From the NCBI GenBank assembly GCA_013115135.1, contig JABANP010000006.1, positions 310,001-374,000 of the forward strand: 64,000 nt of DNA, given 5' to 3'. Positions 55,513 to 64,000 of this stretch are shown here, piece by piece. This DNA comes from Perkinsus olseni (taxonomy: Eukaryota; Perkinsozoa; Perkinsida; Perkinsidae). Position 1 is the stretch's first letter; every line of letters begins with the position of its first letter. The translations under genes were made by a program, and so were the position numbers. Under the pieces are notes generated by a model. It was not told the DNA's origin and made no database searches. It saw only the letters and a program-made list of their open reading frames with translations.

Positions 55513-57240
55513 TCAATCGAGGCATCTGAGGACTTGCCGCAAAAGTTCGACTTTGGCCTCGTGCTTCACAGGTGCGCTCTCTGATCCATACATTGCCAGC
55601 ACGTCTGACACCTCTCCGTGTCTCCCGAGTCTTGCCCACCTGAGAGATATGATGATAGCACGAGGATCCTGCGCGCTCGTCCGGAGGGTACTCACTTAGC
55701 AGCTAGGGCTAGCTGGTCGGCCAGGAATGCCTCCTGTATACCCGGACAGAGACGAAAGCACTTCACAAGGAGCTCAACTGTCTGCGTCTGAGAGAGTATA
55801 TCTAGAACTCACCAAGCCGAAGCAGAGCCCACCTGGCCCCAACGGGCAGCACCGACGATACACGTCCAGTTCATGTTGTGGTCAGTCCTCTCGAGAGCTT
55901 TACGAACTAAGAAACATAGACCACTAGGAGGCCTCGATTCAGAGGAGGAACCGCACCCCCTTCCACCCCCTCCTTCTTAAGCAGCCATCCGAGCATAGTA
56001 CGCACGACCTCAACTTTACCAGCACTCGCTGCTGCCATCATGGGCGTAGTATGGCTGTAGCTCTCGGCGGCACAGTGTGGATCAGCTCCATGAACAAGCA
56101 AAACCTAGGAAGACGAGCACTCAGGAGCACAGTCCTGTGATGTGGAAAAGAGCAGAGCAAGAGACCTTAGTGGCCATCTTCGCCCAGGTTGAGCTCCTGT
56201 GCTGAGGACCCAAGACGTATCAACTAAGCGCATATGACTACGAATCGCAGTCTACGATAGACACCCACACTAAACTCTCTTTGTACAGCACACTCCAGAT
56301 CGTTTCCACTACTGTATTCCCGACTAAAGGGCGACAAGAGAAGCGCCCAAGGGGCTCGTCACAAAACATCGTAGGGAAGTTGTGACGCTCCCGCTGCACA
56401 GCGTCGAAGGTTTCAACGCGGATCTCCGTTTCGAAGGTTTGGAATCCGAGCTCCGTTGTAGCTAGGAGACTCTACTTGTGCCGCTTGATGATGGCCCCAT
56501 CTCGCAGCAAGAAAGAGTGGTGATTGGCCGAACCTGTTGAGTCTATTAACCTGAAAATGGGATGAAACTACATTGCACGTGAATGGCGGTCAACTACATC
56601 TCCTAGATCTTCCGGTGCTTCATCGAGCAGTTTCGAAAGCTTTTCATGATCGCCTAGAGTTGCCAGTGACGACAGTAAAGTGTCACCCTTCCAGTCACAG
56701 TCTGGTACACTCTCTCCGGGGACCTGAGCAGCACCTCCCTCTCAGAGCGCTTTACCCGAGACCGGAGGGAGGGATATGCAAAAAAGGCCTGCAAATCTCA
56801 GGTAGCAAAGAAGACGAAACAAAAAATGGCAGAGAGTGGTCGCCACGACATGAATCCGGTTGTACCGACTTCAAGATCTTTCCCATAAACTAGCAGATAG
56901 AATGGATCATCAGGATGACGAATATGGCGATGGAACTGAAATCGTTAGCAACCGAAAGCGCCTTGTAATGTTGCGTAATCTACTTGATCAGATGATGTCT
57001 CCGCACCGATGGTCATAACAGGACAACACTGTTGTCGTCACAAGCACTTGGAAGCTGAATTGAAAAACTCTACGCACGAGTGCCGGTTGGGAGGAAGTAA
57101 GTCAGAACTCCAAGAACATGCCTGGACATCATATTATAACATCATCCTCACTCCTCTTCTTCCGACTGATGGAGGCCGAAAGCACCGGCTGGTGTCGCCA
57201 TGCCAATCTCAGTGCCAGCTTCAACGCTGCGACTACCTGT
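55513..57240 (-). CDS. Ankyrin-repeat protein
   Basis: Minus-strand exons: SRSVEAGTEIGMATPAGAF (about 57238-57155), VPDCDWKGDTLLSSLATLGD with HEKLSKLLDEAPEDL (about 56730-56575, ankyrin-like), LVHGADPHCAAESYSHTTPM with MAAASAGKVEVVRTMLGWLL (about 56100-55975, a clear ankyrin repeat with the GAD turn and TPMMAAASAG helix), and GRHGEVSDVLAMYGSESAPV to a stop at 55513. Other exons and the start are not resolved. A plus-strand frame at 56895-57006 (MDHQDDEYGDGTEIV) overlaps the region and is either a separate small gene or a shadow. Ankyrin repeats bind proteins; no partner can be inferred. Confidence 0.6.
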
Positions 57241-57674
57241 GGGGACCACGAATCTCACTACGTCACTATTAACGGAGAAGCTTACTAAAGGCTCATCTCC
57301 AGCCAAAGAATTAGATTTTTAGTATGAATACGATCGAAGGGGGCGAGACATGATTCTCTAGCGTGACTAGCCACACTTCTAGAGCGGAACTACCACAGCG
57401 CCGACATGGAGCCGGCCAAATGCCCAGAGTCTGGGCCCCAGACGGCATGTGAAACCGCGATCTTCAGAATCAATGATTCATTAAGCATTTAATTACGTCT
57501 CCGAAGATGCGACGAGCTCTCGTCAATATCGTTGCAGCATCTCCACCCGTTTCTGCACATTTGGACGCTTCACTGCTAGGCGTGGTGGAAGCGTCGCCCA
57601 GTAACTGTATCGGGCACCAGTATTAACGATGCCTTTGTAAACTCGATGAGGTCACGAGTCATGCATCCGTTACC

Positions 57675-60600
57675 TTAGAAGTGTTGAATGACTTTATCTT
57701 CGACATTTGCTTCGCTAGACTCGACCGGAGGCCATTCCCAATGTCTGCACCTGGACAACATGGAGCAAGAACAAGAGTCTGAAAGCCTCAGACCTTCCAC
57801 AGGTGCGAAGTCTTCCCGCGTCGCGTAATACTGGCGACTGAGCTGAAGATTCGGGAGGCATTCCCCATTCACGAGATCCGGTAGCATCTGGGCTAAGACC
57901 TGAAGGTTTGCGAGGTTAAATGGCCAACGCAGGGACTGAGCTCGGTCTGCACTGCAGACTCAGGCGCAGCGTCAGGAGCCGTGATAGCGACTCAAACTGA
58001 ACATGGGGAACCCCGGAACCTGCGGGTGAGGGATTCCATGGGAATGTTTGCTACCTGGTAGAGCGGTAGAACAAGAACATCAATAAAACCAACTTGACAC
58101 TTAGACAGTTTCACGTTGTCCCTGAAAGGAAAAGCCCATCATACTGTGAGAAGGTGGCAGTAGTCTTATACGAGCCAGTACTATCTCACGGAACATACCG
58201 GTCATGCATTGGAGATAGCGGCATTCCCTTGTCCCTTTCCAAGTCGCCCTGCCTAGAAAACTCCTCCATTACCCGGGGCGCCCAGAGAAGGTAACACCTG
58301 CTTTCACATTTCTCCAATCTACAGGAGTATGGTTCACAGGGAGGATGTGAATCAACCAATGAATCAATCTTGTCGGAACAAAAATTTTACCATGCTCTTG
58401 CTGAAAACGGAAGTAACTACAACCCAATCCCTAGTCTCCCTGAGAGTTCCTTACACACCATTCGAGACCCCTTCGAACGTAGTCATTCAACCTACTCAAT
58501 ATCACGTGAGGGGTACGAGATATCTGCAGCATGCAGTAGTATATTCAGCAAGAGCTGGCGGTTCGAGTGCTCGCACTTATTATCTGAGCATATGCCGACG
58601 GTCTCACCGGCTGAGCTAATAAAGGCACTCGCCTGGGAATGTTGCAGGCGAGTTCTTCAATTTGGACCGCAGTTCCGACAATGCGGTGAAATGATTCTGG
58701 TTGTCTGTCATCAGGACCATCTCGATTATCATCTTACGGGATAACGCCCAATCGTCCTACGACACAAAGGAAAACTCGGAACTGCAGGGCTGGAGGCAGG
58801 CGAGCGCGTTCGAAAGCTAACGTGAACTTCCACTTAGAGAATCCACCGGGAAGACGAAACGAGAGGTACTTCAGAGTAAGCTTCCATTGGATTCACTGTC
58901 ATATTGCTAAGCAAAGTGAACGCTGCGGCCAAGTGGTGATTCTCCAATACCTGAGGGACCCCAAGCGTCAGAGGTAGGTGATGCCACTAGAGATGACATG
59001 AAGATCCACAAAGACTCGATGGAGGTTCCACTCACAGCGTCGTCGCTATATCGGATCGCCATGGGATGGTGCGTGTTGACGAGAAAAGGACTGTCGACCC
59101 CCGGGTGCTCATAGTCGTGAATCTGAATCAAAGGCCCACAGAGCAGTTGATGGTGCCGACAGGCCCTACCGCAGCGGCAAAGAGCCCAGCCTGCAGCTCC
59201 TGAGCCGAAAAGAACTGTGGGCACGTCGGTCCCTGTTGGAGTGAGCTGCAAGATATACCGATACATAGCATGTTCGGAATGTTCGGAAAATCGGAGGAGC
59301 TGCTTACACTAAGAGTCCAAGCATCGCCTGCATCACCTCGACAGTGTGCATTGAATTGTGATATGGGTTGCTAGATCGGCAACCCTCCTCAACCCCACTG
59401 AGGAACTCGGCTGTTGCCGCCAAGTCGAGTTTCACTGATAGGAAGCCAATCAGACTCTCCACAGTGTCGAGGAGGCTGAGATCATCTTTTCGAAAGATTG
59501 GAAGATTGTTCCGCTTGGCGGAATCCGCACCGCGGAAAAGTCGGGATTCGGCATTCTGGAAAGGTCCGAGGCGTAGCGTTCCGATCTATTCGAAGCACTT
59601 GGCTCGTGAAGGGCTTAGGGAACAAGCCAGATTTTCGAGAAGGCAGAGCACGCACGGTCACGCTCAGGTGGAATCAGCTGATCTTTTGGCTTCTCGAACT
59701 TCCCTGAGGGGCTCAGCGGCCCGATTTGGCCATATTCACCACCGAATGCCGACACCACACAGAAGAAGTACATTCCCGAGCATAGTAGTAGCGGAAGCTC
59801 GGGTAAGTCACTAACAAAGAGAACACTGATGCTGTAAGTTACAGCCTGTAACCCTACATAAACAATATTCAAATTATCCTCACCTATCACTAAACACGCC
59901 TAGCGCAGCATGAGTGTTGAAGGTTCTATACAGTGTGCCTGTCGCGACATCCTTGCCGAGGGAGCTCAACTTCACCGCCAATGCAGAGTGGCTGACGACG
60001 CCACCGCTAATCGAGCCACGCGTCCTGACGAAGCAGATCTCTAAAAAGAACTGAGGCAGGCAGATCACGATAATCTCGGCGCAACAAGACTGAAGACCGT
60101 TCCTCTCCTTTGCGTTGTCTTCGGCACAGCGAGCACCTCCGCCGGTCTCTTCGAGCTCGGATCTAACTCCGGTGCGTAGCTGGCGTCGAAGGCCTCCGGG
60201 TCTGGGAGGCTTTCTGGGTGACCGAGGAGGTACTGAAACCAGCCAAGAGCCGATGGTGCGCGTAGCAAATATCGACCACAAAGATGAGGGGGGATGCCAA
60301 AAATTGAAGAGGAGGCCGACACTCGTTGAAATTGTGGGCGCGGGATTTGGACGATAGCTGGGGATTCGACAGCTAGGGGAGCCGACTAGCTATCAATGTG
60401 CCCCAAGTCCCGTGACACGGGAACATAAAGACACGGTTCCCGTGTCTTTATAAGCGGCTGCGGCCTGCGAATTCTGTACCATATTCGTACAGTTCTTGGA
60501 CGCCAAGTACCGGAGACACGGATGAAAATGCTATCGGGAACCCCTCTTTCTACGCGCAAGGTGAAGACGTTGAAGGTCCACGATGTCGCTGAACGCGATA

Positions 60601-63600
60601 GGTAGCCGATAACCCGCGCAGTAGCGGGGTCCAGGTCCAGGCGTTGTACGCTCACGTCAGATGGCTCGATCACAGGCCGCTCGCCGGCGAGGATGTTCTC
60701 CAGAAGGACCCCTGTTCGACTCCGGAGAGGAACCTTGACACGAACATCATGCACACGGAGGTATACGGAGGCCATAGTGTTGTCGACACATGCACGTCGA
60801 TGAGATACATCACGAGATGTGTTACACAGTAGTCAACCACCTGCACTAAGCAGGAGAGATAGTTTAATCGGTGAAAGCCTGCACCAGCTGTTTCTCGGTT
60901 CGTTAGAGAGGGGGCGAATTCGGTCTGGCTCACAGGCGGCATCGCTACCGTTATACCGATGCTCATATGGAGCCTAGTAAGATGCGTATCCGCCTGTACT
61001 TTCACGGAAAAATAGCCATGCACTATCTATTGTAGTATACCCCGTTATGCGTCAGCTTTAGTACGCTATCACATAATCAGTTACCTTTGTCGTGCTGTCA
61101 TCCGCTGCCGCACCTGCTGCAGCTTTTTTCTTGGCGAGGAATTTCTCTAACTCATTGTCTCGCCATGTTTTGGTACTTGTCTTAGCACTCGCGCTGAGGA
61201 TGGAGATTCAACTCAAGGGCAGGACTTGTCGCCGAGGTGGCTGAGTAATGTCAGACAAACTGAGGCACAGAATCACCTGCCGAGAGCCAGCCACTCATTG
61301 ATCTCTTGCCGAATGGCCGCGAGCTCGTCATCGCCGTCCCCCCCTGACGTGCCGCGCTTTCCTGCTGTGACCGATATAGTGTATAGGTTGTTGGTATTGA
61401 TAATCTCAGAAGCCCAATTGACTCTCTCGCGCATGGGTCCGGATAGACCCTTAGTCTCCTCGCACCTCGCGGAGGATGTCCATAACTCTATCAACTCGAG
61501 AGCTGAACTGTAATGCGGTGTCGGCACCTGCAGGCTCCACTGAAGAGGTGAAGACCAAGAAATCCTACCGTGATGGCCGCGTCGCTTTTTCCTGCTTCTA
61601 CCCGCTTTGCGCAAGGCAAGCACAAGCCGAAGTAAACGAAAAAGCCTCAGGATGGTAAAGGACTTAGCATTCCCGGGGGCCGCAATCTGCAATCTGGAAT
61701 TTGCCCGTCACTGATCGTTTCTCCGCTAGCAATGAAAGAAGGGACCACCGCGCCCCAATACCTTCGCCACGAAGGAACCCACAACAATGACGAAGTCGAA
61801 CAGGTTCCACCGATCATTGAGGTACCAGTATCCTTCCGCGCTGAAGAGAGCAGTGACGCGTTCAACGACCAGCGAGGTTATACATGAGTCTCATTATTAT
61901 TTCCAGCAGGAACAACCCGAGGAAGACTGTGTCCACTGTCTCGAAGACGTCGCTGACAGCCTCACTCACGTACTCTTCGATGCCTGAGGGTCTAAATGCT
62001 AGCAGAAGACACATAGCTCAGCCCCACCTAGGGCTGCAAGAATAAAGAGAGCATAGACACCAACTAGACCATACACGAAGAATTCGAAACCCCTGGAGTC
62101 AACCACAAGTATGGTCAGCCCACGGAGGAGCTGCCAAGGACCTGATTGAAACGATCTAGTGGAATGATCGGCAGTTACAGCGACCCACTCGGCTCATGCG
62201 CCTCTTCTTGGTGACCATCACTACCGGTAGTTAGTGAGGAGCCAGGAGAGTTCTGGTTTGGCTCAACTCGCACACGACCAAGTTTCCGCATAAGCACGAA
62301 CCTGCAAGAAGTATAGATAGGCCGACCCCGCTCCACCCACCAGATCAGGGCTTGGAAGGCGAGGTTGCGTAGCTGGTCCAACACAAAGACCGCGAACCAG
62401 AAAACGAGAAAAGATAGAGGTCGTCCATACCTGAGCGCGCAATCCCTCGGGATGATAAATCTCGGTTAGAGCGTTACTTTATCGTGTGGAAGACGTCGCT
62501 GGAAACGACCAGAACTAGAGCTACGAAGACGCTTAGGAGGAGCCATTGTAAGGTGCACTTGCGAGAGGCTGCAACCACAGCAGTATCAGCTAAGTCATGC
62601 TCGCCAAGCTGCGACTTGTAACCACTATCGCTGATGGCAATCAGTCTGAGCACGACATATGGACGCCGGGAAGTGACACCTGGGACGAGCTTCTGAATTA
62701 CAAAAGAAGAACATCGAGGACGAACTGGGTCGGGGCGCTGTAAAGTATCGCCAGGAAGACTCGTCCCCACGATATGCAGATGGCCCCATGGTCTTTCTGT
62801 TGCCCGGTGTAGCATACCTGCACTCAACCTCCGCGCGTATTGCCCCTACGATCGGCCTACCTCGTTTCGGAAAGAGTCAGTCTCACAGACGTCTTCCGGC
62901 TCAACACACAGCAAATCATGTTCCTCGATATCTGTGCCAAGCTGCGAGCAATAGGGTCTACTGTCACCACTAGCCGCGTATAACGTCATGGTGAGTGCCT
63001 TTCCGGCAGGGAGAGCATCAAGGCTCAATTCGTCCTATTGTAGAGAAATAAAAATACATGTAACAGCGCGCCTTGGCCACGTCAATAGCATCCTGTTCAG
63101 AGAGCCTTTTTATCACCTCAAGACTAATGGATTGAGCAGCATCATACCCTTCCGCCTTGCACGCTGGGAAACATATTCCAGTCCTAGACAAGCGGGCACG
63201 CTCCCGAAACGAGCCGCTCGATATGCATGGACCTCACCTGGAAAGCCGACCATCCCAAAGTTTAGCGGCCTCAATTTCTGACAGTGTGTCATAAGCCGGG
63301 ATGCTCGGAGCGCAGAAGTCTGCGAAGATACTAGATGTTGCACCGAACTCATCTAGCGGCTTCTTATAGAGATATAATGCTGAGTATTCGTTTCCGCCAA
63401 ATGTGATAACCTATCATCTCAAGGCAAACAATGAGTTCGTTATGCGCGTTCACCGTACCAAGTCCAGATGCGTCTCGCAGGATGAAAGAGGAAAAGAGTC
63501 CACGGCGCAGCCAAGCTTGCAAGCAGATCTCATTCGACAGTCGATCCCATAGTCGCGACTTCTCGTCGACATCAAGATACCAGACACCGAACCGTAACTG

Positions 63601-63760
63601 ATTCCGTTAGTCGCACAGAAGCTCGCACTTATGATGGGGGCATTCTCACATGAGAAGATACAGTAGAAAGCGCGAGAGTCGTGCCATCCCAGGCGATTTG
63701 AAGTTTGGCGGGAGACTGAGAAGAAGTCCCGAGCATCTCTATGGAGCGCTTTTAATCAAT
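57675..63760 (-). CDS. Class I cyclic nucleotide phosphodiesterase with voltage-sensor-like membrane domain
   Basis: Hydrolyses cAMP and/or cGMP. C-terminal exons contain the complete PDE core: WTFNVFTL, ATAEFLSGVEEGCR, NPYHNSMHTVEVMQAM, ELQAGLFAAA joined to IHDYEHPGVDSPFLVNTHHP, VLENHHLAAAFTLL, RKMIIEMVLMTDN, LLLNILLHAADISYP, MEEFSRQGDLERDKGMPLS and KCQVGFIDVLVLPLYQ; the metal His/Asp residues and the purine-clamp Gln are all there. Stop at 57675. Upstream are six hydrophobic segments: LQWLLLSVFVALVLVVSS, LSFLVFWFAVFVLD, FEFFVYGLVGVYALFILAAL (S1), VFLGLFLLEIIMRL (S2), RWNLFDFVIVVGSFVA (S3) and the Arg-rich ILRLFRLLRLVLALRK (S4). S4 leads straight to VDRVMDILREV and MRERVNWASEIINTNNLY, the PDE linker, without S5-S6. 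A 1-kb stretch at 59450-60480 is unresolved. The 5' end lies beyond about 63760. Confidence 0.85.
60404..60455. repeat. Overlapping palindromes inside the phosphodiesterase gene
   Basis: ATAAAGACACGG and CCGTGTCTTTAT (12 bp) form a hairpin with a 3-nt loop at about 60424-60450, just after a second palindrome, CCCGTGACACGGG. They lie in a probable large intron between PDE exons. Confidence 0.7.
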
Positions 63761-64000
63761 AACGCGGCAGACGGCAGTTCTACTCCTTGTCATTCTGCCA
63801 GCACTTGAGGACGACATTATTGGCTCGCAGGTGCGAGCTCAGCCTCCTGGCTATAGGTGGATCGGATGTGAGGAAGTCATACGCCCACATCAAAGAGGAT
63901 GATCACAAACATGCACAAACTGCGAACGATGACCACAGCGCCCCCGCTCTAATGATAAACTGATTGAGAGGTTTCAAACTCTGAGAATCGCGCTCGAATG
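63761..64000. other. Window end, probably still within or upstream of the phosphodiesterase gene
   Basis: No clear exon in the last 240 bases. Exons at 63590-63460 (RFGVWYLDVDEKSRLWDRLS) and 63730-63640 (EMLGTSSQSPAKLQIAW) are tentatively assigned to the same minus-strand gene. Confidence 0.35.

What the first reader, a model, noticed from the sequence alone, without database searches (positions are those of the whole stretch)
57675..62700. Phosphodiesterase fused to a voltage-sensor-like domain with no pore
The minus strand encodes a complete class I PDE catalytic core (HN-x2-H, HD, HAADIS, QxGF all seen) preceded by S1-S4 segments with a regular Arg series in S4 (R-x2-R-x2-R) and no S5-S6 before the PDE linker. 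This is the layout of voltage-sensing phosphatases, but with a cyclic nucleotide phosphodiesterase as the effector. Plasmodium PDEs are known to have N-terminal membrane helices of unknown purpose; here six helices precede the enzyme and the last four look like a voltage sensor. A voltage-controlled cAMP/cGMP hydrolase would directly link membrane potential to flagellar or developmental signalling.
Basis: partly seen in the sequence, partly recalled or inferred. Interest (0 to 1): 0.9.

Follow-up and report, generated by a model that had tools for sequence, protein, structure and literature searches.

The report
Voltage sensor fused to cyclic-nucleotide phosphodiesterase
A single gene in a single-celled shellfish parasite, with relatives in other microbes, joins a pore-less voltage sensor to an enzyme that destroys cAMP/cGMP, so the cell could switch an internal messenger off directly with its membrane voltage.

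Summary
The minus strand carries one multi-exon gene (63,890 to about 57,66x, longer than reported) of Perkinsus olseni (98% identical over 1079 residues to a public P. olseni protein). It encodes four predicted membrane helices with a Cys-rich loop, then S1-S4, then a class I PDE. Pfam Ion_trans matches only in its S1-S4 half (3-113 of 241, E=2.1e-17); PDEase_I is complete (E=2.1e-66). Six database proteins carry both domains; four lie on 3.3-3.6 kb contigs nearly filled by the reading frame. No S5-S6 helix pair follows S4 in 7 of 7 sequences. Charge-transfer residues (S2 D-x6-F-x2-E, S3 WN-x2-D, S4 R-x2-R-x2-R-x5-RK) and PDE metal ligands are identical in 7 of 7. The genome holds a second, divergent copy. 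[quoted passage not shown] neither paper's main text uses the word voltage. Most likely this is a voltage-gated PDE working like a voltage-sensing phosphatase. Voltage control is untested, no structure could be predicted (tool off), and the direction of coupling is inferred.

The parts
57659..63890 (-). VSD-PDE gene, coding part; spliced model with 31 exons, 1183 aa, ending at 57674 (one of the 30 introns, 28 nt in the linker, is an artefact of a length difference); natural stop at about 57659 if the next intron of the public model is not used
   Evidence: spliced alignment to a P0023/P0003 template, GT or GC donors and AG acceptors being required by the script; start codon and C-terminal reading
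63570..63678 (-). TM1 (after the MWAYDF N-terminus, predicted cytosolic)
   Evidence: hydropathy, coordinates
62769..63570 (-). Cys-rich loop between TM1 and TM2, predicted extracellular/lumenal
   Evidence: 8 Cys between model residues 137 and 256 identical in the 6 sequences counted, partial P0001 left out of the count; topology inferred
62298..62769 (-). TM2-TM4 (62769-62639, 62551-62480, 62420-62298)
61569..62141 (-). Voltage-sensor domain S1-S4 (S1 62088-61967, S2 61948-61834, S3 61812-61684, S4 61662-61600; helices cross introns)
   Evidence: Ion_trans 3-113/241, E=2.1e-17; own-genome search hit at 61600-61890; key residues
61570..61611 (-). Polybasic segment from the last RK of S4 onward (net +7 over 20 residues; +5 to +7 in 7 of 7 sequences)
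61085..61527 (-). Conserved cytosolic linker (FSS...RV, WA-x-II-x2-N-x-L, EL-x3-L); contains the one-base length difference
   Evidence: alignment A1
59656..60733 (-). PDE N-terminal region with an insertion seen in the Perkinsus sequences, absent from P0022-P0024 and shorter in P0025; no second copy found in the genome
   Evidence: match to P0003/P0001; one match to 59560-60560 in the genome, a search that skips very common words
57794..59434 (-). Class I PDE catalytic core with HNxxH, HD, HAADIS, QVGF
   Evidence: PDEase_I 1-231/238, E=2.1e-66; metal ligands identical 7/7

Best explanation
A membrane-bound class I cyclic-nucleotide phosphodiesterase gated by its own voltage sensor. Shown by sequence: one protein with a 4-TM/Cys-rich module, a pore-less S1-S4 with complete charge-transfer residues, a polybasic segment and conserved linker, and a PDE core with its catalytic residues intact. 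Inferred: the PDE faces the cytosol; depolarisation drives S4 outward, repositions the polybasic linker and the helices behind it at the membrane, and raises PDE activity (as in voltage-sensing phosphatases), so cAMP and/or cGMP falls; hyperpolarisation relaxes it. The Cys-rich loop may add a second, ligand or redox, input. The opposite sign (depolarisation inhibits) is possible. My split: fusion real about 0.97; S1-S4 senses voltage about 0.8; voltage controls the PDE about 0.62; activation by depolarisation, given control, about 0.65.
For: Ion_trans S1-S4 half plus complete PDEase_I in the final model and in relatives. Fusion in two Perkinsus proteins and four further proteins on 3.3-3.6 kb contigs; of 67 proteins returned by a PDE-core query the 6 top-ranked are exactly the ones with both Pfam domains. 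S2 D-x6-F-x2-E, S3 WN-x2-D, S4 R/R/R/-/R/K identical in 7 of 7 sequences (two of them P. olseni) although groups are only 37-39% identical. VSD profile matches CaV/NaV chains best in the PDB. No helix pair before the catalytic core. Metal ligands and the Gln identical in 7 of 7. Polybasic post-S4 segment in 7 of 7. A divergent paralogue keeps the same order of modules and the S2/S3/S4 pattern.
Against: No expression, electrophysiology or enzyme data. No structure prediction was possible. Position 4 of S4 is hydrophobic (L or M in 7 of 7), so there are fewer charges than in a strong Kv sensor. The window copy has a one-base length difference in the linker. The public P. olseni 'variant 2' (P0002) lacks the PDE part. 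The VSD resembles channel domains; no VSP or Hv1 was among the 60 of 157 chains shown. The paralogue's catalytic site looks degenerate, so some members may have another role. The seven sequences were collected by similarity and form only three groups, so conservation counts few independent lineages.
Confidence: 0.62

Rival explanations
1. The S1-S4 domain is a relic of an ancestral channel that now only anchors and positions the PDE at a membrane; voltage has no effect on the enzyme.
For: Many apicomplexan PDEs have membrane helices without a defined regulatory role (passages); S4 position 4 is uncharged; no functional data.
Against: Gating residues in S2, S3 and S4 are identical in 7 of 7 sequences at 37-39% identity between groups, and are kept (as R/K) in the divergent paralogue whose catalytic residues changed; a mere anchor would not need them.
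Confidence: 0.2
2. The VSD is itself an ion or proton pathway (Hv1-like), or the protein is one subunit of a channel, with PDE activity set by the permeating ion or by a pore partner.
For: Pore-less VSDs can conduct (Hv1; omega currents, passages); Toxoplasma authors read the domain as ion transport.
Against: No S5-P-S6; only a single gap in the S4 charge series, whereas a double gap was reported to suffice for an omega current; no acidic residue in the middle of S1 in any of the six aligned VSDs (that Hv1 needs one there is recalled).
Confidence: 0.12
3. Two neighbouring genes (S1-S4 gene and PDE gene) merged by the reader and by gene predictors.
For: The public P. olseni model does merge neighbours (BT1 transporter upstream, ankyrin gene downstream); P0002 lacks the PDE.
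Against: In P0022-P0025 the coding length leaves only 249-376 bases of the contig for anything else (lengths), with the same order and linker; P0001 has VSD, linker and PDE and no ankyrin repeats (its N-terminus is incomplete, so it says nothing about BT1).
Confidence: 0.02
4. A non-functional allele or pseudoenzyme in this strain.
For: One-base length difference in the linker of the window copy; degenerate-looking paralogue on C65.
Against: All catalytic residues intact; the rest of the frame is open; intact P. olseni copy P0003 in the database.
Confidence: 0.05

Closest known systems
Voltage-sensing phosphatases (Ci-VSP, TPTE/TPTE2)
   Same: S1-S4 without pore, cytosolic hydrolase as effector; basic segment after S4 (that VSPs have one is recalled)
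   Different: effector is a class I cyclic-nucleotide PDE, not a PTEN-like lipid phosphatase; four extra TM helices and a Cys-rich loop in front; VSD matches CaV/NaV domains best
[quoted passage not shown]
   Same: alveolate class I PDE with a partial Ion_trans match; likely the same architecture
   Different: not described as a pore-less voltage sensor in the passages seen; TgPDE4 is reported with many catalytic substitutions; sequences not retrieved here, so orthology untested
Alveolate K+ channel-adenylyl cyclase fusions (Paramecium, Tetrahymena, Plasmodium ACalpha)
   Same: voltage-sensor module fused to cyclic-nucleotide metabolism in alveolates (passages)
   Different: those have a K+ pore and make cAMP; this has no pore and hydrolyses cyclic nucleotide (by homology)
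Animal PDE4/PDE1 catalytic domains
   Same: complete PDEase_I core, 33-39% identity to the animal PDE4-type proteins listed; PDE4D best, PDE1B also, among solved structures
   Different: no UCR (PF18100) or calmodulin region found; membrane sensor module instead

Membership tests
Class I cyclic-nucleotide PDE (PF00233) | PDEase_I domain with HNxxH, HD, HAAD metal ligands and invariant Gln | tested here: met
   E=2.1e-66, 1-231/238; residues identical 7/7
Class I cyclic-nucleotide PDE (PF00233) | hydrolysis of cAMP or cGMP | not testable with these tools
   needs an enzyme assay
Voltage-sensor domain | S1-S4 with S2 acid-F-acid, S3 Asp, S4 Arg every third residue | tested here: met
   (charge missing at S4 position 4)
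Voltage-sensor domain | four-helix fold with S4 arginines facing S2/S3; gating current | not testable with these tools
   structure prediction switched off; gating current needs a bench test
Voltage-gated ion channel | S5-P-S6 pore | tested here: not met
   Ion_trans ends at 111-114 of 241 in 8 of 8 sequences; no helix pair before the PDE core
Voltage-sensing phosphatase | PTEN-like phosphatase region after S4 | tested here: not met
   PDEase_I instead; it may work like a VSP but is not one
K+ channel-adenylyl cyclase fusion | K+ pore and cyclase domain | tested here: not met
   neither found by Pfam
TgPDE4/TgPDE16-like alveolate PDE clade | partial Ion_trans domain together with PDEase_I | tested here: met
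   against the description
TgPDE4/TgPDE16-like alveolate PDE clade | catalytic-domain phylogeny with TgPDE4/16 | tested here: inconclusive

The most novel reading that the evidence does not exclude
This is the first voltage-gated cyclic-nucleotide phosphodiesterase: a conserved pore-less sensor-enzyme family (Perkinsus and other microbes, possibly including coccidian TgPDE4/16), a third kind of voltage-sensor enzyme beside VSP and the channel-cyclases, with a Cys-rich loop as a possible second input. Together with channel-cyclases that make cAMP on hyperpolarisation, it would let membrane voltage set cAMP/cGMP from both the synthesis and the hydrolysis side.
Probability: 0.55. Interest if true: 0.92.

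Novelty: new variant of a known kind. Interest (0 to 1): 0.82.

Why it matters
A direct, pore-free route from membrane potential to cAMP/cGMP breakdown would be a new signalling logic. [quoted passage not shown]). It would make it testable how alveolate cells, including parasites that rely on cyclic-nucleotide signalling, read voltage; it recasts the unexplained 'ion transport domain' of TgPDE4/16; and it offers a ready-made part for voltage-controlled cyclic-nucleotide tools.

Tried and rejected
Rejected: transposon or pseudogene in the roughly 1 kb stretch 60.56-59.56 kb (no second copy found; parts of it are coding in P0001/P0003). Rejected: my first exon choices in which 'IWWVERGRPIYTSCR' and 'NNLPIFRKDDLSLLDTVESLIGFLS' were coding; P0003 shows both are intronic, so the draft scanned and searched contained some intron residues and lacked the Perkinsus insertion; the final model was rescanned. 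Rejected: C290 and C323 PDE loci as VSD-PDE paralogues (a weak TMc match for C290 only; no VSD, N-terminal-module or linker match at E<=1). Rejected: BT1 transporter and ankyrin repeats as parts of the protein; exons matching the N-terminal parts of P0002/P0003 lie upstream at 64.4-69.7 kb (window-equivalent), and P0022-P0025 lack both. Weak: the first protein search scored 8000 candidates and gave only P0001. An earlier count said 10 invariant Cys; the count for the loop is 8.
Full report
WHAT WAS CHECKED. The window is C556:310001-374000 of a 61.5 Mb assembly in 968 contigs. A first look at stop-to-stop frames showed short exons on the minus strand. The six-frame genome search finds both domains independently of any splicing: Ion_trans at 61600-61890 (E=7.8e-7, positions 40-113) and three PDEase_I pieces at 58.2-59.1 kb (E=1.0e-4 to 4.0e-4). 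A hand-spliced draft gave Ion_trans E=3e-18 and PDEase_I E=3.2e-70; the final model gives Ion_trans E=2.1e-17, residues 422-531, profile 3-113 of 241, and PDEase_I E=2.1e-66, residues 890-1131, profile 1-231 of 238, and nothing else at E<=0.1.

GENE MODEL. A spliced alignment to a template (N-terminus of P0023 plus part of P0003) gives 31 exons from 63,890 to 57,674, 1183 residues without a stop; 1098 of 1196 alignment positions are identical to the template. GT or GC donors and AG acceptors were required by the script, so they are not independent evidence; one donor is GC. The start MWAYDFL matches the start of the three relatives that begin there (P0023, P0024, P0025). Over 1079 shared residues the model is 98% identical to P0003, named Perkinsus olseni by NCBI, so the organism is P. 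olseni or extremely close (Alveolata, Perkinsozoa). Intron lengths have a median of 56 nt. One 28-nt 'intron' in the linker is not believable: it marks a one-base length difference between this assembly and P0003 near 61.46 kb. That can be an assembly error or a real allele; intact copies exist. The public P0003 model also contains a BT1 transporter and ankyrin repeats; exons matching its first 389 residues lie upstream at the window-equivalent of 64.4-66.9 kb, and neither part occurs in P0022-P0025, so I read them as neighbouring genes merged by annotation.

ANATOMY. Hydropathy (19-residue windows, mean 1.5 or more) shows in the model TM1, TM2, TM3, TM4, S1, S2 and S3; S4, being charged, is placed by alignment. 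A Cys-rich loop lies between TM1 and TM2 (8 Cys between model residues 137 and 256 identical in the 6 sequences counted, partial P0001 left out). After S4 come a polybasic stretch (net +5 to +7 over 20 residues, counted from the last RK of S4, in 7 of 7), a conserved linker and the PDE. So eight helices precede the enzyme, not six. Not every helix passes the threshold in every relative (TM1 is missing from the shorter P0022 and the partial P0001; TM4 is not detected in P0001 and P0025). With a cytosolic N-terminus this topology puts the PDE in the cytosol (inference). Hydrophobic windows after S4 are one stretch in the PDE N-terminal region of the three Perkinsus sequences and stretches inside the PDE core; there is no S5-P-S6.

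RELATIVES. (8000 candidates scored, a cap): one hit, P0001 (Perkinsus c..., name cut in the listing; P. chesapeaki is my reading). (VSD plus linker of P0001; 7998 scored, a cap): 21 hits, of which P0001-P0003 belong to the family and 18 have Ion_trans but no PDE. (PDE core of P0003; 1565 candidates, lengths about 948-3017 aa only): 67 hits at E<=1e-12; the six best (P0003, P0001, P0022-P0025) carry both PF00233 and PF00520, the other 61 carry PF00233 without PF00520 (animal PDE4 from E=6.9e-46). P0022-P0025 (983, 1036, 1033, 1079 aa) lie on contigs of 3316, 3422, 3351 and 3616 bases, which leaves 249-376 bases beyond the coding length; their DNA was not read here, but there is no room for two genes. 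Pfam scans of 8 sequences (window model, P0001, P0002, P0003, P0022-P0025) all end the Ion_trans match at 111-114 of 241; 7 of 8 have PDEase_I, the exception being P0002 ('variant 2' of P. olseni), which lacks the PDE part.

KEY RESIDUES. In 7 of 7 sequences (window, P0001, P0003, P0022-P0025; window and P0003 are the same species) S2 has D-x6-F-x2-E, S3 WN-x2-D, and S4 R-x2-R-x2-R-x2-(L/M)-x2-RK; the PDE has both His of HNxxH, the HD pair, the Asp of HAAD and the Gln of QVGF. The three groups (Perkinsus; P0022-P0024; P0025) are 37-39% identical to each other overall, so this is selective conservation, though over few lineages. That these S2/S3 residues form the charge-transfer centre is general knowledge, consistent with the review passages seen; the PDE4 residue numbers printed are recalled. 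The VSD profile matches CaV and NaV chains best in the PDB (best whole-chain E=2.6e-43, summed over several repeats; best single repeat in the alignments shown 3e-12; 157 sequences at E<=0.01, 60 shown). By sequence P0001 is closest to PDE4D among solved structures (60 of 265 shown).

SECOND COPY. One search gives 27 PDEase_I matches (a lower bound) at what I count as 12 loci. Ten regions covering the other 11 were read. Family profiles found, in order on one strand before the PDE, the N-terminal module (E=4.8e-7), S1, S2-S3 and S4 (E=3.3e-4, 3.6e-6, 6.2e-4) and weak linker pieces (E=0.48 and 0.055) only at C65 (L017); the nine other regions gave no VSD or N-terminal match at E<=1 and one chance-level linker match (E=0.92, strand opposite to that PDE) (E-values are for this small set of frames, and short exons can be missed). 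That copy keeps S2 D/F/E, S3 D and S4 R/K/R/-/R/K but reads HM for HD and RVAD for HAAD (unspliced reading), so it may be a pseudoenzyme. TgPDE4 is likewise described with many catalytic substitutions (passages).

LITERATURE. [quoted passage not shown] 'voltage' occurs 0 times in the main text of either. PMC10865986 passages: clade B with human PDE1, free-living alveolates and TgPDE4/16, which are expressed only in cat stages; 0 occurrences of 'voltage' or 'ion channel'. PMC5746546 passages on alveolate channel-cyclases. PMC10651576, one section read plus passages: VSD proteins named are channels, sNHE, channel-cyclase, Ci-VSP and Hv1; 0 occurrences of 'phosphodiesterase'. PMC13095418 passages: 0 occurrences of 'phosphodiesterase'. 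Eight searches for a printed VSD-PDE listed none that I recognised as such; several listings were cut (15 of 42, 20 of 29, 15 of 236, 15 of 1,157, 17 of 17, 12 of 17, 8 of 15, and 0 found), and only openly licensed PMC papers were searched, so subscription papers and preprints were not seen.

MECHANISM. Shown: one protein, sensor residues, intact PDE residues, no pore. Inferred: depolarisation moves S4 outward, shifts the basic linker at the membrane and raises PDE activity as in VSPs (the VSP linker mechanism is recalled). Alveolate channel-cyclases are thought to make cAMP on hyperpolarisation, so a depolarisation-activated PDE would complement them. Substrate (cAMP, cGMP or both) is not determined. 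A flagellar or developmental role is speculation.

VERDICT. It is a new variant of voltage-sensor enzymes, with a partial, differently interpreted precedent in Toxoplasma. The voltage control itself remains to be measured.

Noticed in passing
L017 (C65:31500-39500), about 1.6-6.2 kb, + strand: Second, divergent VSD-PDE gene in the same genome; sensor residues kept but catalytic HD and HAAD motifs altered in the unspliced reading, possibly a voltage-sensing pseudoenzyme.
   Followed up: partly
62769-63570, minus strand: Cys-rich predicted extracellular loop with 8 conserved cysteines between TM1 and TM2; no Pfam match at E<=0.1; possible ligand or redox input.
   Followed up: partly
about 61,460, minus strand: One-base length difference in the linker relative to the public P. 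olseni protein; assembly error or real allele; intact copies exist.
   Followed up: partly
55516-57239, minus strand, and window-equivalent 64408-69707: Ankyrin-repeat gene downstream and BT1-type transporter gene upstream, merged with the PDE in the public annotation (P0002/P0003).
   Followed up: yes
L018/L019 (C71): Two similar PDE genes about 9 kb apart on one contig, without a voltage-sensor match.
   Followed up: no
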